NCBI RefSeq assembly: GCF_021184025.1
Contig: NZ_CP036537.1
Coordinates: forward strand, 5,361,001 to 5,425,000
Source of the DNA: Rhodopseudomonas boonkerdii
GTDB lineage: Bacteria > Pseudomonadota > Alphaproteobacteria > Rhizobiales > Xanthobacteraceae
Direction: 5' to 3'
DNA length: 64,000 nucleotides
Shown here: positions 9,352-33,917 of the stretch, in pieces
Layout: each line of letters begins with the position of its first letter
Position numbering within the stretch: position 1 is the stretch's first letter
Position numbers and translations under genes: made by a program
Notes under the pieces: model-generated
Told to the model about the DNA's origin: nothing
What the model saw: only the letters and a program-made list of their open reading frames with translations
Database searches by the model: none

Positions 9352-9811
9352 GTCTGCTCCCCGTATCCGAGAGGGTTTGTCTGCGGTGCGCCCCCGCAAA
9401 CGGTGCTCTCTGACTCTGGTGATCGGGGAGTTAGTAACCGCATGACACGGCCCCACGGCCTTTAGTTCGGAGAACCTGTTGCATACGCCGCAGGCTCCCC
9501 GACCATAGGTCGAAGAGTGGTGCCAATTCGGCGACACCATCCTAGTCATGAGGGGTTACTACGCCCCAGAGCGGCGCGTCCGCTCCACTTTCATATCTAG
9601 CCGAACCGCGCCCGGATGTCTTTCCCTAAACGGAGCGACAGGCAATGACACGCTGAAATCCATCGACTTTTCAGCTTGCCGCCGGCCCCGATGGGGGTGC
9701 CGCCAGCGCATAGGCGCAAATGCGGCACGCTACGCGCCGCCGATCCCCCGCCAAGGTTCGCCACAGCCCGCCGAAGTTTTCGGCGGCCACATCAACGAAC
9801 CAGAGGTGACT
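9352..9811. promoter_or_regulatory. Divergent control region between QseM-like and excisionase-like genes
   Basis: About 460 bases without a convincing gene; the rightward frame crossing it shows no conserved content before 9812. It contains the dispersed inverted-repeat element at 9693-9752 and a stable 8-bp hairpin (CCGCCGAA / TTCGGCGG, 9768-9786) about 25 bp before the excisionase-like start. Confidence 0.5.
9693..9752 (+). repeat. Dispersed control element, copy 1 (GTGCCGC-N18-GCGGCAC)
   Basis: The core is GTGCCGC at 9697-9703 and GCGGCAC at 9722-9728. Flanks are shared with the copy at 33858-33917: a G-run before, then GCTACG, GCCGCCGATCCCC and CCA after. The block ends 60 bp before the excisionase-like ATG. 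It is probably an operator; an FseA-type activator site is the leading guess. Confidence 0.6.
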
Positions 9812-10084
9812 ATGGCCATCCGCCGCAATGCGGAGCTGCCGCCGCGCCTGTTGCGCACACAGGAAGCCGCGCGCTTTCTCGGCATCTCCATCCGCACGCT
9901 TGAAAAACATCGCACCTACGGCACCGGCCCGACCTATCGCAAGATCGGCGGCCGTGTCCTCTACACCGTTCGCGACCTTGAAGCCTGGAGCGCGGTTGGC
10001 ACCCGCAAATCCACGCGCGACAAGAACGCCGGCACGGTCTTTCCCGCTCGCCCGCTTACGCCCGACGAGCGGGGCAAGCTCTGA
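9812..10084 (+). CDS. Excisionase-like winged HTH protein (RdfS/AlpA type)
   Basis: A 90-aa protein with a MerR/excisionase-type HTH: LLRTQEAARFLGISIRTLEKH, then a wing TYRKIGGRVLYTVRDLEAW. Size and fold fit recombination directionality factors and plasmid AlpA-like regulators. The first gene of an ICE replication/processing operon is the usual place of such a factor, and its stop abuts the repA start. AGAGGTGA lies 4-6 bp before the ATG. It could direct the serine recombinase toward excision or regulate repA; sequence alone does not separate these. A hairpin and the dispersed inverted-repeat element lie in its leader. Confidence 0.8.
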   Translation: MAIRRNAELPPRLLRTQEAARFLGISIRTLEKHRTYGTGPTYRKIGGRVLYTVRDLEAWSAVGTRKSTRDKNAGTVFPARPLTPDERGKL

Positions 10085-11110
10085 ATGCTGCGCGACGATC
10101 ACAGACCGGCGCAGCCGACCGACAGCAGCGAACGCAGCCGGCTCGACCCCTTCATAGTCGCGACGGGCGACGCCGCGCCGCGCGACCAACGCGATTTGAT
10201 GGAGCGGCCGTTTTTCTCGCTGGCGAAGACACCGCGCACCAGGCCGATTCTCTACAAGGCTGCCGATGTCGAGGTGCAGGTGCTCGCCATGCCCGAACAC
10301 GGCATGGCGACCATATGGGACGCCGATGTGCTGATATGGGCGGCCTCGCAGATCGTCGCGGCCGAGAATAGCGGCCTTCGCACGTCGCGCTTCTTCCGCT
10401 TCACGCCTTACCATCTGTTGCGCGCCATCGGGCGGCCGACCGGCAATCATCAATATCTGTTGCTGAAAGCCGCGCTCGCGCGCCTGCAATCGACCGTCAT
10501 CGCCACAACGATCCGCAACGGCCCGCATTGGCGTCGCCGGCAATTCTCCTGGGTGAATGAATGGGAGGAAATGACGACGCGCGCCGGCCGCGTCGAGGGC
10601 ATGGAGTTCGTCCTACCCGAATGGTTCTACAACAGCGTCATTGACCGTTCGCTAGTTCTCACCATCGACCCGGCCTATTTCCGGCTCACAGGTGGTATCG
10701 AGCGTTGGCTTTACCGTGTCGCGCGCAAGCACACCGGCCACCAGCGCCACGGCTGGACGTTCGAGGTTTCGCACCTTCACGCGAAGTCCGGCAGCCTCGC
10801 GCGGCCGTCAGACTTCGCGCTCGACATCCGCCGCATCGCCGAGCGCCAGCGGCTCCCCGGCTATCGGCTCCAGATCGAGTGGGAGAACGGCCGCGAGCTG
10901 CTGCTTATGCGGCCGGCAAAAGCATCCACAGTGCCTGTTGAAAACCGTGTGGACGCCATCGGCACATCAGGCGCACGCACTATCGGCACATCAGGCGCAA
11001 ACCGTCCGCCGGACTCTATAGAAGAATCTAACAGAGAATCTAACTCTTGTTATTTGGCGCGCGCGCAAGCGCGCCGTGGTGCCGGTGCCGCCCCGAAGGG
11101 CGAGCCATGA
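10085..11110 (+). CDS. repA: Replication initiator protein A
   Basis: A 341-aa RepA-type plasmid initiator. The conserved part runs from about residue 38 (LMERPFFSLAKTPRT) through FFRFTPYHLLRAIGRPTG and ERWLYRVARKHTG to FALDIRRIAERQRLPGY. The family initiates replication of plasmids and of excised ICEs. The ATG directly follows the excisionase-like stop. The C-terminal 70 residues are low-complexity and carry a repeated IGTSGA peptide, encoded by two 18-bp direct repeats that may be iterons. In related ICEs a ParA gene commonly follows; here only a 21-codon frame is present. Confidence 0.85.
   Translation: MLRDDHRPAQPTDSSERSRLDPFIVATGDAAPRDQRDLMERPFFSLAKTPRTRPILYKAADVEVQVLAMPEHGMATIWDADVLIWAASQIVAAENSGLRTSRFFRFTPYHLLRAIGRPTGNHQYLLLKAALARLQSTVIATTIRNGPHWRRRQFSWVNEWEEMTTRAGRVEGMEFVLPEWFYNSVIDRSLVLTIDPAYFRLTGGIERWLYRVARKHTGHQRHGWTFEVSHLHAKSGSLARPSDFALDIRRIAERQRLPGYRLQIEWENGRELLLMRPAKASTVPVENRVDAIGTSGARTIGTSGANRPPDSIEESNRESNSCYLARAQARRGAGAAPKGEP
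10922..11056. other. Candidate replication origin inside the 3' end of repA
   Basis: In order: two opposed DnaA-box-like sites (GCATCCACA at 10922-10930 and the complement of GCGTCCACA at 10948-10956), two identical 18-bp direct repeats at 10958-10975 and 10982-10999 (24-bp period), then an AT-rich stretch at 11015-11056 with two GAATCTAAC repeats (11024 and 11036, 12-bp period). This is the layout of iteron origins. No experimental support is visible. Confidence 0.45.
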
Positions 11111-11172
11111 CACGCGCGTCCGGCATGGCGCTCGCGCGCAATCCTCATCCCATCCCCGGAGACGCACAATGA
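11107..11172 (+). CDS. 21-codon ORF bridging repA and the DUF2840 gene
   Basis: Its ATG overlaps the repA stop (ATGA at 11107) and its TGA overlaps the ATG of the DUF2840 gene (ATGA at 11169). The peptide starts MTRASGMALARN. The position is where related ICEs usually carry parA, so it may be a coupling peptide or the scar of a parA deletion. No protein family can be assigned. Confidence 0.35.
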   Translation: MTRASGMALARNPHPIPGDAQ

Positions 11173-11687
11173 CCCGTCGCGCTTATCGCGGCGCGCACGG
11201 CCGTCCGCTGCCGGACGGGCCTGCGCCCTTCACGACACTGGTTGAACTCACCTTCGACAAACGCAAGGTCGAGCACTGGATACGCTTCGGCCGCAAGAGC
11301 TACGAACAGATACTCGACCGTCGCCGCAGCGTCGTCGGCTTCGCGCCGGAGAGCACATTCGCCTTCGTCCGCTGGGCTGCCGGCGAGCATGGCACGATCA
11401 TTTCCCGCATCGACATCGTGCGCGCCATCGGGCGCGGCGAGCCGTTCCAGACATTGCCCTTCGTCCGCCCCGGTGGCGACATCCTGTTGCGGCTGGATAG
11501 CTGGCCGAAGGTGCAGCGCGCGCTTGCCGTCATCGACGCCGTGGAGGCGCTGGGCCTCGACCCCGCCGATGTATCGCCGGACTACTGGCGGCACGCGCAC
11601 AACCGCCTGACCGCCAATCTGGAGCCGAGCGCCTACACGCCCGAACGTCATGCCGCATGGATCGGGCGGCGGAGGATCGGTCCATGA
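11169..11687 (+). CDS. DUF2840 family protein
   Basis: A 172-aa protein of the DUF2840 family, a constant neighbour of TraF in Rhizobiales and sphingomonad ICEs. Conserved stretches include TTLVELTFDKRKVEHWIRFG, SVVGFAPESTFAFVRWAA and LLRLDSWPKVQRALAVID. No catalytic motif, signal peptide or membrane segment is seen. It probably works in DNA processing or pilus maturation with TraF; this is inferred only from conserved order. It overlaps the preceding mini-ORF and the following traF by ATGA junctions. Confidence 0.8.
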   Translation: MTRRAYRGAHGRPLPDGPAPFTTLVELTFDKRKVEHWIRFGRKSYEQILDRRRSVVGFAPESTFAFVRWAAGEHGTIISRIDIVRAIGRGEPFQTLPFVRPGGDILLRLDSWPKVQRALAVIDAVEALGLDPADVSPDYWRHAHNRLTANLEPSAYTPERHAAWIGRRRIGP

Positions 11688-12229
11688 CGCGCGCCGGCCT
11701 CCTTATCGCGACGGCGCTCGCTGCCGTTGGCGTCGGCTATCCCGGCCTCACGCCGATGCCGGTCAAACTCATCTGGAACGCATCGGCCAGCGCGCCAATC
11801 GGCTTTTACACAATCGACTTCGACGGCCCGTTTGACGTGACTGATCTTGTCGCCGTCGATGCACCCGAACCGCTCGCGACCTTTCTTAGCGAGCGCGGCT
11901 ATCTGCCAAAGGGCGTGCCTCTGTTGAAGCGCGTGCGCGCCGTTTCCGGCCAGACCGTTTGCAGGATCGGCCACGTCATCACCGTCGATGGCATCATTGC
12001 CGGTGCCGCGCTCGAACGCGACCGCATCGGCCGTGCGCTACCCGTCTGGCAGGGCTGCCAGCGCATCCATACCGGCGAAATCTTCCTCATGAACTGGCAA
12101 GTCCGCGACAGCCTGGACGGCCGGTATTTCGGGCTGATTTCCACGGACCAGATCATCGGCCGAGCGGTGCCGCTCTGGACCGACGAGGACGGCGACGGCC
12201 GCTTTCAATGGCGCGCGCCGACGCGCTGA
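11684..12229 (+). CDS. traF: Conjugative transfer signal peptidase TraF (S26)
   Basis: A 181-aa S26-family serine protease. A single N-terminal membrane anchor (GLLIATALAAVGVGYPGL) is followed by the nucleophile region SASAPIGFYTI and the general-base lysine in LLKRVRAVSG, the Ser/Lys dyad of TraF. TraF trims and cyclises the TrbC pilin in RP4-type systems; a trbC gene is present about 12 kb downstream. The ATG at 11684 overlaps the DUF2840 stop. The frame extends a little upstream, but the membrane anchor begins at this Met. Confidence 0.9.
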   Translation: MTRAGLLIATALAAVGVGYPGLTPMPVKLIWNASASAPIGFYTIDFDGPFDVTDLVAVDAPEPLATFLSERGYLPKGVPLLKRVRAVSGQTVCRIGHVITVDGIIAGAALERDRIGRALPVWQGCQRIHTGEIFLMNWQVRDSLDGRYFGLISTDQIIGRAVPLWTDEDGDGRFQWRAPTR

Positions 12230-12267
12230 CTTCGCACTTCCCCAAACCAACCAGAAGGAGACTGACC

Positions 12268-12600
12268 ATGCCTGCCAATATCTTTGAACCTACCGCCAAC
12301 GGTTACGCCGGCCGCGTCCGGCTGTTCGGAATCGACGAGGCAATCGTGCTCGTCGCCATCGAGCCGAGCGACGCCGACAATGCGCCGGCCTACCGCATCC
12401 ACCTCGACGACGAGGACGGCCCCGAAATCGGCGGCGGCTGGAAACGTGTCGGCGAACGCGCTGGCGACTACATCGCCCTGGAGATCGACAGCCCGCTTTT
12501 CCCCGCGCTGTTTCGTCCGGCGCTGTTCCAGGCCGACGACGAGGGGCGCACCTTCCGGCTCGCGTGGAAGCGGCCGAAGCCACGCGAGGATCGGAGCTGA
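12268..12600 (+). CDS. DUF736 family protein
   Basis: A 110-aa protein of DUF736. It shows the N-terminal YAGRVRLFGIDEAIVLVAIE, a central PAYRIHL and the C-terminal LFQADDEGRTFRLAWKRP typical of the family. DUF736 proteins are small soluble beta-rich proteins of conjugative elements with unknown role, nearly always between traF and the relaxase gene, as here. AGAAGGAG lies 8-10 bp before the ATG. Confidence 0.85.
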   Translation: MPANIFEPTANGYAGRVRLFGIDEAIVLVAIEPSDADNAPAYRIHLDDEDGPEIGGGWKRVGERAGDYIALEIDSPLFPALFRPALFQADDEGRTFRLAWKRPKPREDRS

Positions 12601-12603
12601 TCG

Positions 12604-13491
12604 GTGCGGTTTCCGATCATCCCTTTGTTCGCGGGAATGCACTCGCATCCCTTCGTCCCGCTCGGCGACAAGACGGCCGGCGCGCGCAGCGAAGGTCAAG
12701 GGCGGCCATCGGCCGGCGCTTCGCGCGCACCCTTTACCGTAGCGAGCACGCTGGCAGGCTGGCGTCATAGCGGCGACGGGGCGGCATGGCGTTGTGCCGT
12801 CCTGTTGCTCGCCGGGGCGCTTTCCGTCTGCGCCGGGCCGCGCGTGGCCGCCGCGCAATCCGCGCCGGTCGCGCGTCCCGCCGCCGATCCTTATGCCGCT
12901 CACATCGCCGAGGCGTCGCAGCGGTTCGGCATCCCCGAACGCTGGATTCGCGCCGTGCTGCGCGCCGAGAGCGCGGGCGACAAGGGCGCGATTTCGTCGG
13001 CCGGGGCGATGGGATTGATGCAGATCATGCCCGACACCTGGGCGGCCCTGCGCGTTCGCTACCAGTTCGGTCGCAATCCCTACGACCCGCACGACAGCAT
13101 CATGGCGGGCGCGGCCTATCTGCGCGAAATGTGGGACCGCTACGGCAATGTCGTGGCGATGCTCGCCGCCTACAATGCCGGTCCCGCGCGCTATGACGAG
13201 CACCGTTCGACCGGCCATCCACTGCCGGCCGAGACGCGCGCCTATGTCGCCGCGCTCGCGCCGATCCTTGGCGGTGCGGCCGCATCCGAGGCACCGCCAC
13301 CGCCGCCCGACTGGCGCGACGCACCGCTCTTTATCGTGCGGCCGAACGACAGCCGGGCGACGGTCGCGCCGTCATCAGACGCGCAATCCGGCGACGCTCG
13401 CGCGACCGTTCCGGTGCGCGATCCCGCAGCTACGGCATTGCAAGACGGCAGCATTTTTGTGGCCCGCGCGAGCGTCGGGGATACGCCATGA
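12604..13491 (+). CDS. Conjugation-associated lytic transglycosylase (SLT)
   Basis: A 295-aa frame with a Slt70-type domain: IPERWIRAVLRAESAGDKGA (catalytic Glu in RAESAG), SSAGAMGLMQIMP, then YNPYDPHDSIMAGAAYLREM-like and AAYNAGPARYDEH segments. The enzyme opens peptidoglycan for the type IV secretion channel. The start is uncertain: GTG 12604 gives a long basic leader before the hydrophobic CAVLLLAGALSVCAG and the cleavage-like AAAQS near residue 86, so the true start may be later. The C-terminal 80 residues are Pro/Ala-rich and not conserved. Confidence 0.85.
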   Translation: MRFPIIPLFAGMHSHPFVPLGDKTAGARSEGQGRPSAGASRAPFTVASTLAGWRHSGDGAAWRCAVLLLAGALSVCAGPRVAAAQSAPVARPAADPYAAHIAEASQRFGIPERWIRAVLRAESAGDKGAISSAGAMGLMQIMPDTWAALRVRYQFGRNPYDPHDSIMAGAAYLREMWDRYGNVVAMLAAYNAGPARYDEHRSTGHPLPAETRAYVAALAPILGGAAASEAPPPPPDWRDAPLFIVRPNDSRATVAPSSDAQSGDARATVPVRDPAATALQDGSIFVARASVGDTP

Positions 13492-13808
13492 AGGTGGCAT
13501 TCCCGCGCTCGGCGGCGCTCGTTCCGGTGTGCGGTCAGGCCGGTTTGCGTCTGGCTGCATACCGGGCCGGAGACGCAGAAAGGGGCGAAGGAGCGGAGGG
13601 CAAGATAAAGGAAACCGGCACTAGGTCGGCCGGATTTCTGAAATTGTTGTTGTCTGCACACTGGTTAGGGGGTCCGCGAGCGGCACCACGGTTTTTAATC
13701 CCGCGTGCCGCGATGTTGCGCAAAGCCTTGGCTTTGCTGAGTTTCGACCGGCACCATGACCGCCGAACGTCCGATTTTCTTGAGTTTTGGCCGAAGGCGC
13801 GTCCATGA
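13488..13808 (+). CDS. Doubtful 106-codon ORF between transglycosylase and relaxase genes
   Basis: The ATG overlaps the transglycosylase stop and the TGA overlaps the relaxase ATG, so the frame fits exactly between them. The peptide is basic, has no recognisable domain, and composition drifts toward AT-rich near its end. The same interval is the natural place for oriT, so the frame may be only a coupling device or chance. Confidence 0.3.
   Translation: MKVAFPRSAALVPVCGQAGLRLAAYRAGDAERGEGAEGKIKETGTRSAGFLKLLLSAHWLGGPRAAPRFLIPRAAMLRKALALLSFDRHHDRRTSDFLEFWPKARP
13600..13804. other. Candidate oriT region upstream of the relaxase gene
   Basis: The interval contains a perfect 7-bp inverted repeat with a TT centre (CAAAGCC/GGCTTTG, 13721-13736), a GTTTTTAAT tract and a G-run (GGTTAGGGGG). 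Origins of VirD2-like relaxases usually lie just upstream of the relaxase gene. No nick consensus such as ATCCTG was recognised. Confidence 0.35.
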
Positions 13809-15868
13809 GCGCCGATGACGAAATCCGCTTTCGGCCGAAGCCCGGCCGTATCCGATCCGATGCGCCACGAACGGGCAAGACCAAGAGCTTTCTCACCCAG
13901 GCGAAGAAGATCGCGCGCCAGCACAGCACCGGCCCGTCCAGATCGTCGCCGCGATCATCGCCGCGTCTAGTTAAGACCCCGACCGCTAAGGGCGGCAAGG
14001 GCGCGCGCTCGACTGGAGGACCGGGCGTCCGGCGCGGTCGCGGCGCGGCCTTCGTTCGCGCCCGCACCTTGTCGGGCGGCTGGCGTCACAGCGCGCCCGG
14101 AATGCGCCGCATCGTCGTCAAGACCCGCTACGTCAAGGAAGCCGGCAGGAATGGAAGGGCAGCCGCCCATCTTCGCTACATCCAGCGCGACGGCACATCG
14201 CGCGATGGCGAGCGCGGCCAGCTCTATTCGGCGATCGAGGACCGCGCCGATGGCGCTGCTTTCCTTGAGCGCGGCCAGGAGGATCGCCACCAATTCAGAT
14301 TCATCGTCTCGCCGGAGGACGGCGCGGACCTATCGGACCTGACAGCCTATACTCGCGACCTCATGCGTCAGGTGGAAGCCGACCTTGGCACGAAACTCGA
14401 TTGGGTCGCGGTCAATCACCACAACACCGGCCATCCCCATGTCCATGTCATCGTGCGCGGCAAGGAAGACCTGGGCGAGAACCTTGTCATCAACGGCGAC
14501 TATCTTGCCAACGGCATCCGCGAGCGGGCGAGCGAATTGACCACGCTGGAGCTTGGTCCCGTCACCGAGATCGAGCAGACCCGCAAGCTGTCAGCCGAGA
14601 TCGACCAGGACCGTTTCACCCGCATCGACCGGGCGATGGCCGAGGAAGCAGACGACCGATTCCTCGACCTTCGCCACGAGCCGGCCGAGCCGCGCCGCCA
14701 GTTCAATCGCGCGCTGCGCCTTCGCCGTCTCGCCAAGCTGGAGAAGATGGGGCTTGCGACCGAGCACGCGCCGGGCGTTTGGGAGTTGAGCGAGCGCATG
14801 GAGCCGACCTTGCGCGACATGGGCGAGCGCGGCGACATCATCCGCAACATGCACAAGGCGCTAAAGGCCGATGGCCTGGAGCGCGACCCGCTCACCTTCC
14901 AAATCCATGACGGGCCGCCCGAGACGCCCATCGTCGGCCGTGTCGTCGATAAATATCTGTCCGACGAACTGGGCGAGAACCTGACCGTTGTAGTGGACGG
15001 GATCGACGGCCGGACCCATCACGTCGCCGGCATCGACCCGGCGCGCGTTGAAGATGCGCGGATCGGCAGCGTCGTCGAGATCGGCCCGCCAGACACCGCG
15101 CAGCGGCCATCCGACCGGAGCATTGCCGCCATCGCCGAGGATGGCGTCTATCGGCCGAGCCGCCATCTGGAGCAGGCGAAGTTCGAGGGGCGTGTTCCGG
15201 GTGGCGACTATGAGGGCTATGTCGATGCCCATGTGCGCCGGCTGGAGGCTTTGCGCCGAGCCGGGATCGCCGAGCGGATCGACGCCGACCAATGGCGCAT
15301 CCCCGAGGATTTCGAGAGCCGCGCCGCCGCATACGACGCCGGCCGCAATCGGCAGGCCAGCGTTCGCGTCCTGTCGGTGCTCGACCTTGAAAAGCAGATC
15401 AGCGCGGACGGCGCAACGTGGCTCGACCGGCGGTTGATCACGCCCGACGCATCCGACCTTGCAGCGACCGGGTTCGGCCAACAGGTGCGCGAGGCGATGG
15501 ACAGTCGCCGCGAGCATCACATCGACCAGGGCGACGCTACGCGTCGACAGGACGGCCGGACCTTCTATCGGCGCAATCTTCTCGCGACGTTGCGCGAGCG
15601 CGAGGTTGCCAGCGTCGGGGCGGAGATCGCCGCGAGCAAGGCGCTGCCGTTCCGCGCAGCTACGGACGGCGAAACCGTCAGCGGCAAGTTCACCGGCACC
15701 GTGCAGCTCATCAGCGGCAAGTTCGCCATTGTCGAGAAGGCGCACGAGTTCACGCTTGTTCCTTGGCGGCCGGTCATCGACCGTCAACTCGGCCGCGAGA
15801 TTATGGGCGTCATGCAGGGTGGATCGGTATCGTGGCAGTTGGGGCGATCGAGAGGGCCGTCGCTTTGA
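13805..15868 (+). CDS. VirD2-like relaxase with DUF3363 domain (RlxS type)
   Basis: A 687-aa DNA-nicking transferase. After a basic, disordered N-terminus (residues 1-95) comes MRRIVVKTRYVKE and the histidine cluster NHHNTGHPHVHVIVRG at about 204-219, the metal-binding 3H motif of MOBP relaxases. Candidate nucleophile tyrosines lie near 109-125. The C-terminal two thirds is DUF3363, ending in a typical SVSWQLGRSRGPSL. It should cut oriT and pilot the strand to TraG. The ATG at 13805 overlaps the preceding frame's stop. The gene ends intact, with the cargo insert starting right after. Confidence 0.9.
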   Translation: MSADDEIRFRPKPGRIRSDAPRTGKTKSFLTQAKKIARQHSTGPSRSSPRSSPRLVKTPTAKGGKGARSTGGPGVRRGRGAAFVRARTLSGGWRHSAPGMRRIVVKTRYVKEAGRNGRAAAHLRYIQRDGTSRDGERGQLYSAIEDRADGAAFLERGQEDRHQFRFIVSPEDGADLSDLTAYTRDLMRQVEADLGTKLDWVAVNHHNTGHPHVHVIVRGKEDLGENLVINGDYLANGIRERASELTTLELGPVTEIEQTRKLSAEIDQDRFTRIDRAMAEEADDRFLDLRHEPAEPRRQFNRALRLRRLAKLEKMGLATEHAPGVWELSERMEPTLRDMGERGDIIRNMHKALKADGLERDPLTFQIHDGPPETPIVGRVVDKYLSDELGENLTVVVDGIDGRTHHVAGIDPARVEDARIGSVVEIGPPDTAQRPSDRSIAAIAEDGVYRPSRHLEQAKFEGRVPGGDYEGYVDAHVRRLEALRRAGIAERIDADQWRIPEDFESRAAAYDAGRNRQASVRVLSVLDLEKQISADGATWLDRRLITPDASDLAATGFGQQVREAMDSRREHHIDQGDATRRQDGRTFYRRNLLATLREREVASVGAEIAASKALPFRAATDGETVSGKFTGTVQLISGKFAIVEKAHEFTLVPWRPVIDRQLGREIMGVMQGGSVSWQLGRSRGPSL

Positions 15869-16065
15869 TGGGTGCCGCAGAGATCATACTTCCATCAACT
15901 GTCCTCGATGTCAGATTAGAAATGACCACGGGGCGCATCTCTAGGTGGTTGGTAAAATCGGCCGCTTGGCAGGTCCTGACGGAACGTTATGTTCCACGCG
16001 GTCAACCCCCGCCCGAAGCGAAAGCTTCCCCCCATGGTCAGTTTGTATTGCTCAGGAGAGAATAA
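15868..16065 (+). CDS. Small hypothetical ORF after the relaxase gene
   Basis: A 65-codon frame whose ATG overlaps the relaxase stop (ATGA). The peptide has no known domain. Base composition changes to more AT-rich inside it, so it probably marks the junction between backbone and the inserted ArsR-MFS cargo. It may not be expressed as a functional protein. Confidence 0.3.
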   Translation: MGAAEIILPSTVLDVRLEMTTGRISRWLVKSAAWQVLTERYVPRGQPPPEAKASPHGQFVLLRRE

Positions 16066-22579: not shown

Positions 22580-22590
22580 AGGACACGCCC

Positions 22591-23052: not shown

Positions 23053-23057
23053 ATATT

Positions 23058-23083
23058 CAACCCGTCCTATTCGCCGCCGATAG
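23058..23083 (+). repeat. 26-bp element upstream of trbB
   Basis: A 25/26 match to the element upstream of traG (20473-20498). It ends about 103 bp before the trbB start, a spacing close to that at traG, so it probably acts in transcription of the trb operon. Confidence 0.65.
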
Positions 23084-23186
23084 CCGCCGATCACCGCATC
23101 CGCTTCGATAGTTGTTGAATCGGTCCGACTTCCGCCTCTCTTAATCAGCCCCGTTGCGGGGACCGTCAATTGCGCCCCGTCAGGAA

Positions 23187-24173: not shown

Positions 24174-24502
24174 TTCAATCCGTCTCGCATATCCGTCACC
24201 GCCTCGCGACAGCCACGGCTTTCGTGACCGTCACGTTGCTCACGGCCCCGGCCGCCCATGCGTCCGGCTCGTCGATGCCGTGGGAGCAGCCCTTGCAGCA
24301 AATCCTGCAATCCATCGAAGGGCCGGTTTCCAAGGTCATCGCCGTCATCATCATCATCGTCACCGGCCTGACACTGGCGTTCGGCGACACGTCAGGCGGC
24401 TTCCGCAGGTTGATCCAGATCGTATTCGGCCTGTCGATAGCTTTCGCCGCGTCGAGCTTCTTCCTGTCGTTCTTCTCGTTCGGCGGCGGGGCGCTCGTTT
24501 GA
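24170..24502 (+). CDS. trbC: TrbC prepilin
   Basis: A 110-aa VirB2/TrbC pilin precursor: a signal region with TAPAAHASGSSMPWEQPL at the processing site, then two membrane helices around 52-72 and 82-105. It would be trimmed by signal peptidase and TraF. The ATG overlaps the trbB stop; the TGA overlaps the trbD ATG. Confidence 0.9.
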   Translation: MIQSVSHIRHRLATATAFVTVTLLTAPAAHASGSSMPWEQPLQQILQSIEGPVSKVIAVIIIIVTGLTLAFGDTSGGFRRLIQIVFGLSIAFAASSFFLSFFSFGGGALV

Positions 24503-24783
24503 TGGCGGCCGTCCTCGAACAACTCGACGCGGTGCCGGGATTTTCCATTCCCGTCCATCGGGCGCTGACCGAGCACATCATGCTCGGCGGCGCACCGCGC
24601 TCCATCGCGATCATGAACGGGACGCTGGCCGGGGCCGTGGGCCTGGGCCTGCGCCTCTGGCTTGTCGGGCTGGCGATATGGGCCATCGGCCATTTCGCAG
24701 CGGTATGGGCGGCGAAGCGCGACCCGCTCTTTGTCGAGGTTGGCCGCCGCCATTTGCGCATCCCCGCGAACCTTGCAGCGTGA
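24502..24783 (+). CDS. trbD: TrbD (VirB3-like) inner-membrane protein
   Basis: A 93-aa protein with the VirB3/TrbD pattern: GFSIPVHRALTEHIMLGGAP, a membrane segment (about 37-66) and a short basic tail VGRRHLRIPANL. It helps anchor the TrbE ATPase at the membrane. Its start overlaps the trbC stop by one base. Confidence 0.9.
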   Translation: MAAVLEQLDAVPGFSIPVHRALTEHIMLGGAPRSIAIMNGTLAGAVGLGLRLWLVGLAIWAIGHFAAVWAAKRDPLFVEVGRRHLRIPANLAA

Positions 24784-24793
24784 GGGCACGGCC

Positions 24794-27250: not shown

Positions 27251-28014
27251 CCATTCGTCGTTTTCGTTCGCGCGCCGTCTTCATGGCCGCGTCCATGCTC
27301 GCCGCGCCGCTTGCCGTTTTCCCCGTCTTTGCGCCGCCGGCTGCCGCTCAATGGATCGTATATGACCCGACCAACTACGCGCAAAATGTGCTGCAAGCCG
27401 CACGCGCGCTCCAGCAGATCAACAACCAGATCACCAGCCTGCAAAATCAGGCGCAGATGCTCATCAATCAGGCGCGCAATCTGGCGAGCCTGCCGTTTTC
27501 GGCGCTCCAGCAGATTCAGCAGAACGTCCAGCGCACGCAGCAACTTTTGAGCCAGGCGCAGAACATCGCCTTCAACGTCCAGCAGATCGACCAAGCGTTT
27601 CAAAGCCAATACGGCAATGTGTCGATGTCGGCGAGCGACCAGCAGCTTGTCGCCGATGCTCGCACCCGCTGGAAAAACACCGTGGGCGGCCTGCAGGACG
27701 CCATGCGCGTTCAGGCCGGCGTCGTCGGCAACATCGACAGCAACCGCACGCAGATGTCGGCGCTTGTCGGCCAGAGCCAGGGCGCGACCGGCGCGCTCCA
27801 GGCGACGCAGGCAGGTAATCAGATTCTCGCGCTCCAGTCGCAGCAGCTTTCCGATCTTGTCGCGCTTCTCGCGGCCAATGGCCGGTCGAGCGCGCTGACC
27901 GAAGCGGAACGAGCGGCAGCCGCCGAACAGGGACGCGAGCAGCGCCGCCGCTTCCTGACGCCGGGCAGCGGCTACCAGCCCGGCAACGCGCAGATGTTCA
28001 ACAACGGCAATTGA
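27247..28014 (+). CDS. trbJ: TrbJ (VirB5-like) transfer protein
   Basis: A 255-aa periplasmic protein with a signal peptide (about 1-35, ending APPAAAQ) and WIVYDPTNYAQNVLQAARAL, the family opening. A long Gln-rich coiled-coil region follows. VirB5 homologues are minor pilin components at the pilus tip. The C-terminal 60 residues are low-complexity. Confidence 0.9.
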   Translation: MTIRRFRSRAVFMAASMLAAPLAVFPVFAPPAAAQWIVYDPTNYAQNVLQAARALQQINNQITSLQNQAQMLINQARNLASLPFSALQQIQQNVQRTQQLLSQAQNIAFNVQQIDQAFQSQYGNVSMSASDQQLVADARTRWKNTVGGLQDAMRVQAGVVGNIDSNRTQMSALVGQSQGATGALQATQAGNQILALQSQQLSDLVALLAANGRSSALTEAERAAAAEQGREQRRRFLTPGSGYQPGNAQMFNNGN

Positions 28015-28024
28015 GGGCGAGCGC

Positions 28025-28303
28025 ATGGACGGCAAGTTGCTGGCGCGCATCGGCGCAATCGTGTTCGTCGCCATCGCCATCACGGCGACGGCCATCGAAA
28101 TGACGCGCAAGGAAGACGTACTGGCGCAGGCGCCGACACGTCTCATCCAACCCGACCGCGATCCGCTGCGCGAAGGGCAGCGGCGATGCCAGCAGCTTGG
28201 GGCAAAGGCGGCCGACGACCCGGAATGCCTGCGCGTATGGGCCGAAACCCGCGACCGCTTTCTCGGCCGGACCCGCGCGCCGGCCGCCCCGGAAGGGCGG
28301 TGA
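28025..28303 (+). CDS. trbK: TrbK-like entry-exclusion candidate
   Basis: A 92-aa protein with one N-terminal membrane segment (IGAIVFVAIAITATAIEM) and a conserved pair of cysteines in RCQQLGAKAADDPECLRVWAE. Position between trbJ and trbL and the two-Cys C-terminal motif match the alternate TrbK family. In RP4, TrbK mediates entry exclusion; whether this unrelated-looking version does so is inference. A GGGCGAGC site precedes the ATG. Confidence 0.8.
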   Translation: MDGKLLARIGAIVFVAIAITATAIEMTRKEDVLAQAPTRLIQPDRDPLREGQRRCQQLGAKAADDPECLRVWAETRDRFLGRTRAPAAPEGR

Positions 28304-28306
28304 CGC

Positions 28307-29626
28307 ATGGGCGGCGCGGGAGTCATCGACAATTTTCTCGGCACCTTCACCCGCTACATCGACAGCGGGTTCGGCCTTCTCGGCGGCGAGGTGGCGTTCA
28401 TCGCCACGACGCTCATTGTCATCGACGTGACCTTGGCCGCGCTCTTTTGGTCATGGAGCGCGGACGACGACATTTTCGCCCGGCTCGTCAAGAAGACGCT
28501 GTTCGTCGGTGTCTTCGCCTACCTCATTTCCAACTGGAACAGCCTCGCGAAGATCGTCTTCGATAGCTTCGCCGGCCTGGGCCTGAAAGCGAGCGGGACG
28601 GGATTTTCGGCCGCAGACCTGATGCGGCCCGGCAAGGTCGCGCAAACCGGCCTCGATGCTGCCCGGCCGCTGCTCGACTCGATTTCCGACCTTATGGGTT
28701 GGGTCGCCTTCTTCGAGAACTTCATACAGATCGCCTGCCTGCTGTTCGCCTGGGCGCTCGTCATCCTCGCGTTCTTCATCCTCGCCATCCAGCTTTTCGT
28801 CACGTTGATCGAGTTCAAATTGAGCACGCTGGCGGGCTTCGTGCTGATCCCGTTCGGCCTGTTCGGCAAGACCGCCTTCATGGCCGAGCGCGTGCTTGGC
28901 AACGTCATTTCCAGCGGCATCAAGGTTCTGGTGCTGGCTGTCATCGTCGGCATCGGTTCGACGCTGTTCTCGCAATTCACGCAAGGCTTCGGCGGACAGA
29001 CGCCGAGCATCGACGACGCTATGGCCATCGTGCTCGCGGCGCTGTCGCTCGTCGGCCTTGGCATTTTCGGTCCCGGCATCGCGTCCGGCCTCGTCAGCGG
29101 CGGGCCGCAGCTTGGCGCGGGCGCGGCGGTCGGAACCGGCCTTGCCGTTGGCGGCGCTGCCCTTGCCGCAGGCGGTGCAGTCGGCCTTGCCGCAAAGGGA
29201 GGTGCAGCCGCCGTGCGCGGTGGCGCGACCACAGCCGGCGCGGCATCCGCCGCCTATAGCCTTGGTTCGTTCGGCCACTCCGGCGCGGCTGGCGTCGCTT
29301 CCGGCCTGGGCGGCGTAGCGCGCGCCGCAGGCAGCGCGGCCACATCGCCGCTGCGCCGGGCGACGGCAAGCGTCAAGTCCAGCTTCTCGGATGGTGTGAA
29401 GGCCGGGTTCGGCGCGACCGGCGGCACATCGACCGCTGGCACGGTTGGCGGCTCGGCCGAAGCCGCATCTTCGCAGGCCACTGGCGCGCGGCCCGGCTGG
29501 GCGCAGCGAATGCGACAGGGCGGGCACACCGCCCATGCCGTCCAGACGGCCGCGCACGCCGTCCGCTCCGGCGACGGCCATGCCTCCAGTTCTTCCGTCA
29601 ACCTCTCTGAAAGCGACCGCACATGA
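28307..29626 (+). CDS. trbL: TrbL (VirB6-like) polytopic channel protein
   Basis: A 439-aa inner-membrane protein with at least five membrane segments between about residues 28 and 260. The Gly/Ala/Ser-rich C-terminal region (about 265-439) is low-complexity, as usual for TrbL. VirB6-type proteins form the inner-membrane part of the DNA channel. It begins four bases after the trbK stop and overlaps trbF. Confidence 0.9.
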   Translation: MGGAGVIDNFLGTFTRYIDSGFGLLGGEVAFIATTLIVIDVTLAALFWSWSADDDIFARLVKKTLFVGVFAYLISNWNSLAKIVFDSFAGLGLKASGTGFSAADLMRPGKVAQTGLDAARPLLDSISDLMGWVAFFENFIQIACLLFAWALVILAFFILAIQLFVTLIEFKLSTLAGFVLIPFGLFGKTAFMAERVLGNVISSGIKVLVLAVIVGIGSTLFSQFTQGFGGQTPSIDDAMAIVLAALSLVGLGIFGPGIASGLVSGGPQLGAGAAVGTGLAVGGAALAAGGAVGLAAKGGAAAVRGGATTAGAASAAYSLGSFGHSGAAGVASGLGGVARAAGSAATSPLRRATASVKSSFSDGVKAGFGATGGTSTAGTVGGSAEAASSQATGARPGWAQRMRQGGHTAHAVQTAAHAVRSGDGHASSSSVNLSESDRT

Positions 29627-30312
29627 GCATCTTCAAACGACCCGCCGTGCATTACGGCAAGACCCCACAACCCGAAACGCCATATCAGCGCGCCGCGCAG
29701 GTTTGGGACGAGCGGATAGGTTCTGCTCGCGTCCAGGCGCGCAACTGGCGCACTATGGCGTTCGGCAGCCTGCTCCTGACGGCGGGCTTCGCTTCCGCCC
29801 TTGTCTGGCAGACCGCACGCGGGACTGTCGTGCCCTGGGTGGTTCAAGTGGACAAGCTCGGCCAGGCGCAAACCGTCGCGCCGGCCACCGCCGACTATCG
29901 GCCGACAGACCCGCAAGTGGCGTGGCATCTGGCGCGCTTCATCGAGCAGGTCAGGAGCATCCCGGCCGATCCCATCATTGTCCGGCAGAACTGGCTTCGC
30001 GCCTACGAATGGACGACCGACCAGGGCGCGGCGGCGCTCAACGATTATGCGCGCGCCAACGACCCGTTCGCAAAAGTCGGCAAGCAACAGGTGTCCGTCG
30101 ATGTGTCGAGCGTCATCCGTGCCTCGCCCGACAGCTTCCGCGTCGCCTGGACCGAGCAGCACTATGAAGACGGCAAGCTCGCCTCGACGGAGCGGTGGAC
30201 CGCGATCCTGACCATCGTGATCCAGCCGCCGCGCGACGCCGACCGACTGAAAGCCAACCCGCTCGGCATCTACGTCAACGCAATTTCGTGGTCGAAGGAA
30301 ATGGCGCAATGA
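29623..30312 (+). CDS. trbF: TrbF (VirB8-like) scaffold protein
   Basis: A 229-aa bitopic protein: a short cytoplasmic part, one membrane segment (about 43-62, SLLLTAGFASALVW), then the VirB8 periplasmic NTF2-like domain with VPWVVQVDKLGQ and VAWTEQHYEDGKL. It nucleates the envelope-spanning complex. It overlaps trbL and trbG by four bases each. Confidence 0.95.
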   Translation: MSIFKRPAVHYGKTPQPETPYQRAAQVWDERIGSARVQARNWRTMAFGSLLLTAGFASALVWQTARGTVVPWVVQVDKLGQAQTVAPATADYRPTDPQVAWHLARFIEQVRSIPADPIIVRQNWLRAYEWTTDQGAAALNDYARANDPFAKVGKQQVSVDVSSVIRASPDSFRVAWTEQHYEDGKLASTERWTAILTIVIQPPRDADRLKANPLGIYVNAISWSKEMAQ

Positions 30313-31262
30313 GCAAGGGTTTCCGCAAACCCGCATTTGCCGCTGTCTTGCTGTCAGCGACCGCGCTCGCCGGCTGCGCAACCTATAAGCCGCCACAAAT
30401 CAGCTACGACGCCAACGTGCCGCCTTTGCCGGCCGTGCCCGCTGCCGTCACCGACACGACGCCGAAGCCGCTGCATATCCCGCCAGCCTGGACCCCGACC
30501 AAGGGGGGCGCGGCTGCCGGCACGCCGCTCGCCCGCGTCGAGAACGCCAACGCCGCCGCCCGCGTGCAGCCGCGCCGCGAAGGCTATTACAACGCCATCC
30601 AGATTTATCCCTGGAGCGACGGCGCGCTCTATCAGGTCTATGCCGCGCCCGGCCAGATCACCGACATTGCGCTTGAGCCGGGCGAGAGCCTGACCGGCGC
30701 GGGACCGATTGCGGCCGGCGACACGGCGCGCTGGATCATCGGCGACACGGAATCCGGCTCCGGCGTCACGCGCCGCGTGCATATCCTTGTGAAGCCGTCC
30801 CGGCCGGACATCACGACGAACCTTGTCGTGACCACCGACCGGCGCGTTTACATGCTCGAGCTGCGCTCGGATCAGAAGCCCTATATGCCCGCCGTGGCCT
30901 GGGCCTATCCGCAGCCGCCAGCCGGGCAGCGGGCGAGCATTCCGGCAACGCCGGTTATTCCGGCCGCCGCGGCGCGCAACTACCGCTATGGCCTGACCGG
31001 CGACAATCCGCCTTGGAAGCCGGTCGCAGTCTATGACGATGGCCGCAGGGTCTATGTCGAGTTTCCGCGCGGCATCGTGCAGGGCGAGATGCCGCCCATC
31101 TTCGTCATCGGGCCGGGCGGCGAAGCGCAGATCGCCAACAGCCGCATCTATCAAAACATCCTGATCGTGGATCGCCTGTTCGGCGCGGCCGAGCTGCGCC
31201 TTGGCGGCGGCAAGAGCCAGCAGACCGTCAGGATTGTCCGCACGGACGGGAGGCCATCATAA
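30309..31262 (+). CDS. trbG: TrbG (VirB9-like) protein with lipobox
   Basis: A 317-aa protein with a lipoprotein signal (SATALAGCATY, Cys at about 21). Its domains are VirB9-like: an N-terminal part with YNAIQIYPWSDGALYQVYA and a C-terminal beta domain with YDDGRRVYVEFPRG. It forms part of the outer-membrane core complex with TrbI. Many TrbG proteins have such a lipobox. The stop TAA shares a base with the trbI ATG. Confidence 0.95.
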   Translation: MSKGFRKPAFAAVLLSATALAGCATYKPPQISYDANVPPLPAVPAAVTDTTPKPLHIPPAWTPTKGGAAAGTPLARVENANAAARVQPRREGYYNAIQIYPWSDGALYQVYAAPGQITDIALEPGESLTGAGPIAAGDTARWIIGDTESGSGVTRRVHILVKPSRPDITTNLVVTTDRRVYMLELRSDQKPYMPAVAWAYPQPPAGQRASIPATPVIPAAAARNYRYGLTGDNPPWKPVAVYDDGRRVYVEFPRGIVQGEMPPIFVIGPGGEAQIANSRIYQNILIVDRLFGAAELRLGGGKSQQTVRIVRTDGRPS

Positions 31263-32425
31263 TGACCGACACCGAAACCAACACCGCCGCCCCGATGCGG
31301 CTTCGCGCGGAGCCGCCGCGCGTCACCCGCTTGTCGCGCAAGGTGCTCGCCAGCGCGGCGGCTGTCGCGCTCGTCGGGATCGGAGGAACGCTGATCTATG
31401 CGCTCCAGACCCGCGCGCCTGGCAATGACGGCAAGGAGCTTTATTTGACTTCCAACCGCCAGCCTGCCGATGGCCTCGCCGGGTTGCCGAAGGATTACAC
31501 CGGCCCGGTGCTCGGCCCGCCGCTGCCGGGCGACCTTGGCCGTCCGATCCTCGACGCGCAGAACAGGGGCCAGCCGGTCGTGCCGCCGACGATCACCGCG
31601 CCGACCGTGGATCGCGCCGAGGAACGCCGGCTTGCCGAGGAAGAAGCCGCACGCACCAGCCGCGTGTTCTTCCAGACCGAGGCACGCGCCGGAAGCCCGG
31701 CCGCAACGCCGGGCGGCGCGACCATGCCAGGACTTCCCGGCCTCGACCTTGCTGGCGTGACAGGGCAGCCCGGCCAGCAGACCGCGCAGGACAAGCAGCT
31801 TGCTTTCCTCAATGCGCCCGTCGATCGCCGCACCACATCGGCGGATCGCATCACGGCTCCGGCATCGCCTTTCGTGCTCCAGGCCGGGGCCGTGATCCCG
31901 GCCGCGCTCATCACCGGCATCCGTTCCGATCTTCCGGGGCAGATCACCGCCCAGGTGACGGAGCCGGTTTATGATAGTCCAACCGGCCGCATCCTGCTCG
32001 TGCCGCAGGGCACGCGGATCATCGGCCAGTATGACAACAACGTGCAATTCGGCCAGCGCCGCGTGCTGCTCGTCTGGAATCGTCTCATCCTGCCGAACGG
32101 CCGATCCATCGTGCTGGAGCGACAGCCAGGCGCGGACAGCCAGGGCTATGCCGGGCTGGAGGATGGCGTCGATTATCATTGGTGGGATTTGGCGAAGGCC
32201 GCCGGCCTCTCGACGCTGCTCTCCGTTGGAGCCGAGCTTGCTGTCAATGACGAGGACCGGCTGTTGAGCGCCATCCGCAACGGCGGCCAGGACACCATCA
32301 ACGACGCAGGCCAGCAGATCATTCGCCGCCAGCTCAACGTCGCCCCGACGCTCACCATCCGGCCGGGCTTCCCCGTCAGGATCGTGGTCACACGCGACCT
32401 TGTGCTCGAACCCTACCGGAGCTGA
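31262..32425 (+). CDS. trbI: TrbI (VirB10-like) core-complex protein
   Basis: A 387-aa VirB10-family protein. One membrane segment (about 24-45) is followed by a Pro-rich periplasmic linker and a C-terminal beta-barrel domain with PFVLQAGAVIPAALITGIRS, RILLVPQGTRIIGQYD and a final PVRIVVTRDLVLEPY. It couples inner-membrane ATPases to the outer-membrane pore. Confidence 0.95.
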   Translation: MTDTETNTAAPMRLRAEPPRVTRLSRKVLASAAAVALVGIGGTLIYALQTRAPGNDGKELYLTSNRQPADGLAGLPKDYTGPVLGPPLPGDLGRPILDAQNRGQPVVPPTITAPTVDRAEERRLAEEEAARTSRVFFQTEARAGSPAATPGGATMPGLPGLDLAGVTGQPGQQTAQDKQLAFLNAPVDRRTTSADRITAPASPFVLQAGAVIPAALITGIRSDLPGQITAQVTEPVYDSPTGRILLVPQGTRIIGQYDNNVQFGQRRVLLVWNRLILPNGRSIVLERQPGADSQGYAGLEDGVDYHWWDLAKAAGLSTLLSVGAELAVNDEDRLLSAIRNGGQDTINDAGQQIIRRQLNVAPTLTIRPGFPVRIVVTRDLVLEPYRS

Positions 32426-32427
32426 CC

Positions 32428-32655
32428 ATGACCAGACTGAAACTCGGCGCGATCCCCGACGACAAGCCCGTCAAGGTGACGATGGAGTTGCCCGCGCCGC
32501 TCCATCGCGATCTTGTCGCCTATGCCGAAATCCTCGCCCGCCAGACAGGCCAGCCGCTCACCGATCCCATGAAGCTCATTGTGCCGATGCTCGAAAGATT
32601 CATCGCCACGGATCGGGAGTTTGCGAAGGCACGGCGCGCGGCCGGACGGGATTGA
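32428..32655 (+). CDS. DUF2274 family protein
   Basis: A 75-aa DUF2274 protein: LGAIPDDKPVKVTMELPA, LHRDLVAYAEILARQTG, then a helical end. The fold looks like a ribbon-helix-helix protein, so it may be a small DNA-binding regulator. It is the regular last gene of trb operons in this ICE family, three bases after trbI. Confidence 0.85.
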   Translation: MTRLKLGAIPDDKPVKVTMELPAPLHRDLVAYAEILARQTGQPLTDPMKLIVPMLERFIATDREFAKARRAAGRD

Positions 32656-32699
32656 TCGCACAAACTTGACCGGCCACTTGGCACATGGCGGGAACGCCG

Positions 32700-32713
32700 A
32701 CGTTCGCGAACGT
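32700..32713. other. Perfect 14-bp palindrome between convergent genes
   Basis: ACGTTCGCGAACGT lies between the ends of the DUF2274 and permease genes. With no central loop it suits a dimeric protein site better than a terminator. No second copy was noticed. Confidence 0.3.
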
Positions 32714-32724
32714 ATTTGCAACGT

Positions 32725-33696
32725 CTAAGCCGTTGATCGCTTGGCCGCTCCAAGTTTCGGAATCAGCCGCATGTAGATCAATTCGCTTATCAGCTCGACC
32801 AGTGTTTGCGTGACGATGATCGCCGGCAGGATTGGCACCGCACCCGACACGGCGAAAGCAAGCGGCAATACTACGAGCGAATTTCTGGTGGCGGCGCTGA
32901 ACGCGATCGCGCGGCCGGCCGCTGCCTCAAGGCCGAACAGCCGGCCGACGCCCCAACCGATCAGGGGCGCAAGGATCGCAAAGGCGACATAGACCGGCAG
33001 CACGCGCAACGCGCCGTCGATCGCCGGCCCGAGCTGCGGGACCACGGCGGCGATGACGACGAACAGAACGAGAGCGGTCGCCGGGACGGGCAAGACCCCG
33101 AGAACCGTTGCAACACGCTCTCCCGCCCGGCTGCGGCCTGCACATATCTGCACGAGGGCGGCCAGCACGAGGGGAACCGCGATCAGCCAGACGAAGGCAT
33201 GAACGAAAGGCCCGATCTGCACGAGGTTCGCCGCATCGGCCCCGAGAAAGAAGCCGAGATAGACCGGCAGCAGCACCATTTGCAGGATGAGCAGCGCCGG
33301 CGTGGACGCCAGCAGCAGCCGGGCAACGGCGCGGCCCAGATGCGAGAACGTCACAACATAGTCGATGCAGGGCGTCAGCAGGACGAACAGGACGCCAAGG
33401 CGCAACATCGGGTCGGCCGGCAGGAATTGAACGAGGACCGCAACGAGGATCGGCACCACCACGAAATTTGTCACGAGCAACGCCGCAAGGAACCGGACGC
33501 GCGCGAAGGCTCGGCCGAGGTCGGCAAGGGGAACCTGCAGGAAGGTGACGAACAGCATCAGCGCCAGCGCCGGATTCACGGCGCTCTCTAGCGCGGTCGT
33601 TCCCGGAACGAGCAAAGCGATTATCGCAGCCAGAACGACCGCGCCGAAATAGATTTTGACCTGCTGTGTTTCGAGGATTTCCCGAATGCTGTTCAA
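32725..33696 (-). CDS. ACR3/bile acid:sodium symporter superfamily permease
   Basis: A 323-aa protein with about ten membrane segments. It begins MNSIREILETQQVKIYFGAV, as in ArsB/ACR3-like proteins, and has LTPCIDYVVTFSHLG, where the Cys matches the conserved cysteine of ACR3 arsenite carriers. AFSAATRNSLVVLPLAFA corresponds to the second crossover motif of the BASS fold. Arsenite efflux or organic-anion transport are both possible. It is transcribed against the trb genes and is cargo of the ICE. No arsenic genes such as arsC lie beside it. Confidence 0.75.
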   Translation of the reverse strand: MNSIREILETQQVKIYFGAVVLAAIIALLVPGTTALESAVNPALALMLFVTFLQVPLADLGRAFARVRFLAALLVTNFVVVPILVAVLVQFLPADPMLRLGVLFVLLTPCIDYVVTFSHLGRAVARLLLASTPALLILQMVLLPVYLGFFLGADAANLVQIGPFVHAFVWLIAVPLVLAALVQICAGRSRAGERVATVLGVLPVPATALVLFVVIAAVVPQLGPAIDGALRVLPVYVAFAILAPLIGWGVGRLFGLEAAAGRAIAFSAATRNSLVVLPLAFAVSGAVPILPAIIVTQTLVELISELIYMRLIPKLGAAKRSTA

Positions 33697-33857
33697 ATTC
33701 TTGCTTTCGATAAAAGCGGCGAAGCTACCGATTCAAGCGAGAGTTTCGCGACGATTCCTGCAACGCCGCATGAAATATCTTTCTCCTACCAGCGCCGGAA
33801 CCGCAATGGGCCAATTTCCACCATCACCATAGGGGCCGCCTCAGCGTCCACCGGGAA

Positions 33858-33917
33858 AGGGGTGCCGCCAGCACGACAGCGCGAATGCGGCACGCTACGG
33901 GCCGCCGATCCCCCTCC
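33858..33917 (+). repeat. Dispersed control element, copy 2 (GTGCCGC-N18-GCGGCAC)
   Basis: GTGCCGC at 33862-33868 and GCGGCAC at 33887-33893 are spaced exactly as in copy 1 (9693-9752), with shared flanks. The block ends 65 bp before the first gene of the integrase operon. Confidence 0.6.

What the first reader, a model, noticed from the sequence alone, without database searches (positions are those of the whole stretch)
9693..33917. Same 60-bp inverted-repeat element before the excisionase/rep operon and the integrase operon
GTGCCGC-N18-GCGGCAC with matching flanks occurs at 9693-9752 and 33858-33917, each about 60 bp upstream of the first ATG of an operon. The two operons encode the presumed directionality factor plus replication/transfer genes, and the toxin-antitoxin plus serine recombinase. 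A shared activator, perhaps the FseA-like protein, would switch excision, replication and stabilisation together.
Basis: partly seen in the sequence, partly recalled or inferred. Interest (0 to 1): 0.75.

Follow-up and report, generated by a model that had tools for sequence, protein, structure and literature searches.

The report
Twin FseA boxes on a mobile element
A mobile DNA element carries the same regulator-binding promoter twice, once before its transfer genes and once before its cut-and-paste recombinase genes, so one activator probably switches on both at once, where the best-studied relative switches them on one after the other.

Summary
GTGCCGC-N18-GCGGCAC lies at 9697-9728 and 33862-33893; 51 of 60 bases agree, the only pair of 60-mers in the window alike at 50 or more positions. 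Read as GCCGCC-N16-TGCGGC, each copy has the 6-16-6 layout of the FseA box of ICEMlSym-R7A. Copy 1 precedes rdfS, beside fseA and a qseM-like gene. Copy 2 precedes a small ORF, a TumE/HTH pair and a large serine recombinase ending at tRNA-Ser. The 80 loci returned by a capped pattern scan put the box before rdfS (39), the small ORF and recombinase (33, plus one cut locus) or an AlpA gene beside a tyrosine integrase (4); three are interrupted or cut. No second copy was seen in 40 kb of 20 divergent elements, and not every element with this box has two. Best reading: an FseA-dependent promoter was duplicated and placed before the excision module, making wiring parallel (FseA to transfer, FseA to excision) where R7A is serial (FseA, RdfS, intS). 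FseA binding is inferred, not shown. The small ORF accompanies this recombinase even without box, toxin or HTH gene, and may be its directionality factor.

The parts
8266..8481 (+). FseA part 1 (DUF6499); WGL codons at 8440-8448 mark the expected +1 frameshift site
   Evidence: PF20109 3.1e-24; frames; codons; frameshift itself inferred from the known family
8540..9049 (+). FseA part 2 (DUF2285 / RovC DNA-binding domain), other frame
   Evidence: PF10074 1.8e-30
9064..9351 (-). QseM-like DUF2285-only protein, divergent from rdfS
   Evidence: PF10074 1.1e-6
9697..9728 (+). Box 1, FseA-box-like; hexamers 9699-9704 and 9721-9726, 16-bp spacer
   Evidence: geometry from PMC10359603
9729..9757 (+). 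Promoter-like core: GCTACG (-35-like), 17 bp, CAAGGT (-10-like)
   Evidence: conservation; assignment inferred
9812..10084 (+). rdfS-like wHTH (HTH_17)
10085..15868 (+). Operon after rdfS: RPA replication initiator, DUF2840, S26 peptidase, SLT, DUF3363 relaxase
20594..32669 (+). T4CP and trb genes to TrbI (31262-32425), then a DUF2274-like ORF (about 32400-32669)
   Evidence: DUF2274 named at that place in relatives
33862..33893 (+). Box 2; hexamers 33864-33869 and 33886-33891, 16-bp spacer
33894..33922 (+). Promoter-like core: GCTACG, 17 bp, CATGCT
   Evidence: conserved in relatives; assignment inferred
33982..34296 (+). orf104, undescribed small protein; candidate recombination directionality factor
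   Evidence: no family in Pfam, NCBIfam, PHROGs; neighbour of the recombinase
34293..34646 (+). TumE (DUF6516) toxin-like
   Evidence: PF20126 3.5e-8
34643..35041 (+). wHTH protein, probable TumA-like antitoxin or regulator
   Evidence: PF25212 1e-19
35038..36627 (+). Large serine recombinase (homology ends near 36627; the ORF reads on through the tRNA)
36673..36762 (-). tRNA-Ser(GGA); its 3' end is the likely right junction of the element

Best explanation
The two elements are copies of one FseA-dependent promoter. FseA, made by +1 frameshifting and probably held back by the QseM-like protein, would bind each 28-bp box as a dimer just upstream of a poor -35 and switch on two operons in parallel: rdfS-rep-traF-relaxase (replication and transfer) and orf104-(TumE-HTH)-serine recombinase (excision, plus optional stabilisation of the excised circle). 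Shown: sequence, geometry, conservation, gene order, association with FseA-type trb elements. Inferred: duplication as the origin of box 2 and its placement after the trb operon, FseA binding, activation, and that orf104 sets the direction of recombination.
For: Box geometry equals the R7A FseA box: nnCGnn-N16-nnCGnn next to the -35. Of 51 other rdfS promoters read, 24 have a perfect 6-bp inverted repeat 102-116 bp before the RdfS match, with lineage-specific arms; four control stretches of the same width give 0-2 of 51. FseA is found upstream in 34 of 39 rdfS-class loci; four of the other five have under 1.3 kb upstream, the fifth has its QseM gene displaced. Of 30 places with 2 or fewer mismatches in 397 genomes, 14 precede rdfS, 14 orf104, 1 AlpA, 1 a recombinase remnant. 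Of the 80 loci returned by a capped pattern scan: 39, 33, 4 and 4 other, one of the four being a cut orf104 locus. Six genomes have both boxes on one contig and strand 21-36 kb apart. Box present in 12 of 14 readable recombinase loci that have the HTH gene, 0 of 10 with orf104 but no HTH gene at 1 or fewer mismatches. Same core spacing after both boxes: GCTACR, 17 bp, CATGGT-like.
Against: No binding or expression data. The scan patterns fixed the arms and GCTA, so arm conservation in those sets is by construction; only one search was picked by the recombinase, and there by loci that have the box. Of 19 genomes with boxes at 2 or fewer mismatches only 8 have both kinds; 6 show only the rdfS one (four of one genus with another spacer) and 5 only the recombinase one (drafts and the pattern's fixed spacer bases may hide some). 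Two elements with trb genes and the recombinase operon lack box 2 (G351, G403). The spacer is conserved although single changes there had no effect in R7A, so another factor may also read this promoter. Box arms hardly vary among two-box elements, so the two boxes could not be shown to co-vary. No sigma-70-like promoter was found around box 2, as expected for an activator-dependent promoter but not proof of one. One 1-mismatch arm match lies after the trb genes of G318; its 62-bp context is at background.
Confidence: 0.77

Rival explanations
1. The boxes are read mainly by another factor of the element (RdfS, the HTH protein or RPA) or of the host; FseA is only a neighbour.
For: [quoted passage not shown] The spacer is more conserved than FseA binding needed in R7A.
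Against: The HTH gene is not found in the 4 AlpA loci, which keep the box, and box 1 occurs on a Ketogulonicigenium plasmid beside genes annotated DUF6499, DUF2285 and helix-turn-helix. RdfS had no consensus motif in R7A.
Confidence: 0.12
2. Box 2 is a passive relic of a promoter duplication, or a recombination repeat, without present function.
For: In G039 the rdfS-type promoter is fused to an orf104-type leader, as if the two repeats had recombined. Some elements do without box 2.
Against: In loci picked by the recombinase and having the box, arms and the -35-like hexamer are 0.95-1.00 identical while upstream DNA is 0.30; a box also stands before the module when that is a tyrosine-integrase one.
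Confidence: 0.08
3. The inverted repeat acts in RNA (attenuator or terminator) rather than as an operator.
For: It is an inverted repeat.
Against: 18-bp loop, no terminator-like site around box 2, and it sits upstream of promoter-like hexamers at a fixed distance.
Confidence: 0.03

Closest known systems
FseA box of PrdfS, ICEMlSym-R7A (PMC10359603; abstract, sections 10, 18, 25 and passages read)
   Same: Two inverted hexamers with conserved central bases, 16-bp spacer, next to the -35, upstream of rdfS, with FseA (DUF6499 + DUF2285, +1 frameshift).
   Different: Arms here are GCCGCC/TGCGGC; a second copy precedes the excision module, which the parts I read do not describe.
RdfS-intS cascade of R7A (PMC11963761; passages read)
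   Same: Excision and transfer are induced together, starting from FseA.
   Different: There FseA acts on rdfS and RdfS then activates intS; here the recombinase operon has its own FseA-box-like site, and the recombinase is a serine one.
Tripartite ICE3 cascade RdfS to rdfG/rdfM (PMC5882170; passages read)
   Same: Several excision modules tied to one induction signal.
   Different: Further RDF genes depend on RdfS, not on an FseA box.
TumE-TumA toxin-antitoxin (PMC10584680; passages read)
   Same: DUF6516/TumE gene beside an HTH protein gene.
   Different: Placed between orf104 and the recombinase, behind an FseA-box-like promoter; absent in some elements.

Membership tests
FseA box | Two inverted hexamers with conserved central pair, spacer 15-16 bp | tested here: met
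   Both copies GCCGCC-N16-TGCGGC; definition
FseA box | Directly upstream of a -35 element | tested here: inconclusive
   GCTACG, 17 bp, CAAGGT/CATGCT follow both; no mapped start, no sigma-70 hit around box 2
FseA box | Located upstream of rdfS (box 1) | tested here: met
   Box 1 precedes rdfS
FseA box | Located upstream of rdfS (box 2) | tested here: not met
   Box 2 precedes orf104 and the recombinase, so box 2 is filed as works like an FseA box
FseA box | Bound and activated by FseA | not testable with these tools
   Needs EMSA and reporter assays
FseA family | DUF6499 and DUF2285 in two frames with WGL site | tested here: met
   PF20109 and PF10074, frames and WGL
ICEMlSym-R7A-type ICE | rdfS, traF, relaxase, trb, fseA backbone | tested here: met
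   backbone list in PMC8627217 (passages)
ICEMlSym-R7A-type ICE | Tyrosine integrase IntS | tested here: inconclusive
   Serine recombinase at the right end, no IntS among the ORFs scanned in the window, but the left end was not located
TumE-TumA | TumE domain with adjacent HTH antitoxin gene | tested here: met
   PF20126, PF25212
TumE-TumA | Toxicity neutralised by the partner | not testable with these tools
   -
Recombination directionality factor (orf104) | Switches the recombinase to excision | not testable with these tools
   Only gene association; model of low confidence

The most novel reading that the evidence does not exclude
One FseA lineage rewired the control of its element from a chain to a fork: by duplicating its own promoter in front of an exchangeable excision module it lets FseA directly start transfer and excision, and the module's first gene, orf104, belongs to an undescribed family of directionality factors for large serine recombinases that insert at tRNA 3' ends.
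Probability: 0.42. Interest if true: 0.7.

Novelty: new variant of a known kind. Interest (0 to 1): 0.58.

Why it matters
It would extend the known targets of FseA from one promoter to two and show that control of excision in this family need not pass through RdfS. The box is a marker by which such elements and their excision modules can be found, and it points to a likely directionality factor for a group of serine recombinases found at tRNA genes, a kind of protein that is hard to find by sequence. It also raises a testable problem: how a new recipient makes recombinase for integration if that operon depends on FseA.

Tried and rejected
RNA attenuator or terminator: rejected. A second box in FseA elements at large: not seen in 20 of 20 divergent rdfS elements over the 40 kb read, which start about 2 kb upstream of rdfS. 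FseA or its N-terminal part was matched in 18 of these 20 (not in G158 and G109b); the end of the trb genes is not reached in G109b and only just in G109a. In one search my script picked a wrong repeat in 6 elements; one search rescanned them with hand-set arms. Co-variation of the two boxes inside divergent elements: could not be tested, because none had two. The element's left end: not found; flanks of two relatives gave no usable match. Structure of orf104: AlphaFold mean pLDDT 63.7, one helix at 66-84, so no fold search was made; no PDB match for the family profile. Box in viral contigs: none for the one exact pattern tried. The marker I called orf102 (minus strand) is probably the antisense of a DUF2274 gene on the plus strand, as annotated in relatives; it was used only for position. 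My first translation of rdfS from 9813 was out of frame and was corrected. Paper searches for an FseA box before an integrase or for this small protein (listings, open-licence PubMed Central only) showed none in titles or abstract starts; of the listed papers I opened passages or sections of five, so this is weak evidence of absence.
Full report
Observation. Each is GTGCCGC-N18-GCGGCAC (9697-9728 and 33862-33893), with 0 hits in 100 shuffles of the window. Over the quoted 60 bases 51 agree, and among all same-strand pairs of 60-mers in the window only this pair reaches 50 of 60.

Identity. Pfam places DUF6499 at 8266-8481 and DUF2285 at 8540-9049 in another frame, with a WGL motif at 8440-8448, and a second, DUF2285-only protein on the minus strand. 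This is the FseA/QseM pair known from ICEMlSym-R7A. PMC10359603 (abstract, sections 10, 18, 25 and passages) describes the FseA box as two inverted hexamers with conserved central bases and a 16-bp spacer beside the -35 of rdfS, and a logo from 439 alphaproteobacterial rdfS promoters. Our sites read GCCGCC-N16-TGCGGC and are followed by GCTACG, 17 bp and CAAGGT or CATGCT. I read 51 other rdfS promoters; 24 of 51 have a perfect 6-bp inverted repeat (14-18 apart) 102-116 bp before the RdfS match, with arms that differ by lineage, against 0, 0, 1 and 2 of 51 in four control stretches of the same width. The other 27 show at best imperfect versions. So box 1 is, by layout and place, the FseA box of this element.

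Second box in relatives. In 397 genomes of the order, 26 had a match with up to 3 mismatches, 38 places in all. I fetched and annotated 32 of the 38 (all 30 with 2 or fewer mismatches and 2 of the 8 with three). Of the 30, 14 precede rdfS, 14 precede orf104-recombinase, 1 precedes an AlpA gene (PF05930, 4.1e-11) convergent to a tyrosine integrase, and 1 runs into a recombinase remnant; of the 2, one precedes rdfS and one nothing recognised. The 30 lie in 19 genomes: 8 have both kinds (G000, G150, G260, G295, G300, G355, G425, G426), 6 only the rdfS box (G207, G351, G359, G370, G372, G422), 5 only the recombinase box (G039, G193, G307, G393, G401). In six genomes (G000, G295, G300, G355, G425, G426) a pair lies on one contig and strand, 21-36 kb apart; in G260 the pair spans the ends of its single contig; in G150 the two are on different contigs. 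The 39 and 33 hold 38 and 27 distinct 100-base promoter sequences. Of the four others one is an orf104 locus cut by the stretch end (L231, by eye), one has what looks like a transposase gene just after the box (L189, by eye), one is cut by the stretch end (L202), one is a deletion into the recombinase (L211). By their titles the hosts include, in my recalled taxonomy, Hyphomicrobiales, Rhodobacterales, Sphingomonadales, Caulobacterales and one gammaproteobacterium (Modicisalibacter). In plasmids, 12 records hold one place each; of the 4 that I opened, 3 have orf104-type modules and 1 rdfS.

Not by construction. The patterns fix arms and GCTA. In 12 loci picked by recombinase similarity and in which a box was then found, mean pairwise identity is 0.30 upstream, 0.95 and 1.00 in the arms, 0.83 in the spacer, 0.95 in GCTACR, 0.74 in the 17 bp, 0.84 in CATGGT and 0.48 further downstream. 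Of the 42 recombinase matches in 397 genomes I had 30 as loci. Fifteen have the HTH gene; one is cut by its contig; 12 of the other 14 have the box. The two without are G351 and G403; in G403 orf104 follows the DUF2274-like gene directly, with no room for a promoter. Ten loci have orf104 but no HTH gene; none of the 10 has a box with 1 or fewer mismatches, and one has a 2-mismatch match in an unlikely place.

Lineage. Twenty divergent rdfS elements were read for 40 kb each, from about 2 kb upstream of rdfS onward; FseA or its first part was matched in 18. None has a second copy of its rdfS promoter: the next best ungapped match is 31-36 of 62 positions, against 52 of 62 in the window; a 41 of 62 value in G109b is the box read on its other strand. 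G109b does not reach the end of its trb genes within the stretch and G109a barely does. The second rdfS of this same genome has other arms, GGGCGAA/TTCGCCC. So the second box marks some elements with the GTGCCGC-type box, best explained by duplication of about 60 bp of promoter. In G039 an rdfS-type promoter is joined to an orf104-type leader with fseA and qseM beside it, as expected from recombination between the two copies.

What box 2 controls. TumE is found in 24 of 33 orf104-class loci and the HTH gene in 32 of 33. orf104 is within about 1.1 kb upstream of the recombinase in 24 of 30 loci by tblastn; in 5 more (L033-L037) a small ORF with a similar motif (an acidic pair and proline, then EL and E) is seen by eye, as also before the more distant recombinase of this genome; the last (L016) is cut by its contig. 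Pfam, NCBIfam and PHROGs show no family for the window's orf104; one relative has a single weak PHROGs match (E 0.024, unknown function). With the AlpA case this makes orf104 the best candidate for the directionality factor. That is inference; the structure model is poor.

Boundaries. The recombinase homology ends 46 bp before tRNA-Ser(GGA), whose 3' end faces the element. In relatives the homology that includes this tRNA starts within a few bases of that 3' end. Of 55 recombinase loci 5 are too short; 41 of the other 50 (40 of 48 distinct) have a tRNA gene 37-61 bp downstream with its 3' end towards the recombinase: 20 Ser, 18 Arg, 2 Asn, 1 Trp. The left end was not found.

Mechanism and limits. 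In R7A, FseA activates rdfS and RdfS then activates intS (PMC11963761, passages); in tripartite ICEs RdfS activates rdfG and rdfM (PMC5882170, passages). Here a box before the excision operon would let FseA act on both at once. Steps shown: sequence, geometry, conservation, gene order. Steps inferred: duplication, binding, activation, the role of orf104, the role of the toxin pair in keeping the excised circle.

Noticed in passing
G000:C1:820451-854252 (L346, L347): A second FseA-type region in the same genome: rdfS with box arms GGGCGAA/TTCGCCC, and about 32 kb away a 42% recombinase with its own small upstream ORF.
   Followed up: partly
L095 (G039:C9), 9918 onward: FseA-QseM, then an rdfS-type promoter fused to an orf104-type leader and recombinase: probable deletion between the two boxes; the FseA match there has an internal stop.
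   Followed up: partly
window 36627-36762 and relatives: This large serine recombinase family lies beside tRNA 3' ends (Ser, Arg, Asn, Trp) in 41 of 50 readable loci, a site choice more familiar (recalled) from tyrosine integrases.
   Followed up: partly
L388 (Enterobacter pKPC_CAV1176), L391 (Brevundimonas pBH3a): The box-orf104-DUF6516-HTH-recombinase module also occurs on plasmids, in L388 after trb genes, in L391 beside resistance genes.
   Followed up: no
L389 (Paracoccus sp. TOH p2): Box, a hypothetical and an HTH gene followed by a recombinase gene in the opposite orientation.
   Followed up: no
window 32725-33696 (-): A bile-acid-symporter-like gene sits between the trb end and box 2; in many relatives the box stands directly after the trb end.
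   Followed up: no
window 9697-9728 and relatives: The spacer holds a second, not concentric dyad (GCGC-ATAG-GCGC) and is conserved beyond what FseA binding needed in R7A; cause unknown.
   Followed up: no
G094 element at about 39.35 kb: A related AlpA-tyrosine integrase pair (70% and 79%) occurs in a divergent FseA element; no box is seen in the 330 bp read before it.
   Followed up: partly
G207, G359, G372, G422 (L074-L077): Four genomes of one genus share a rdfS box with the same arms but another conserved spacer, and no second box was found in them.
   Followed up: no
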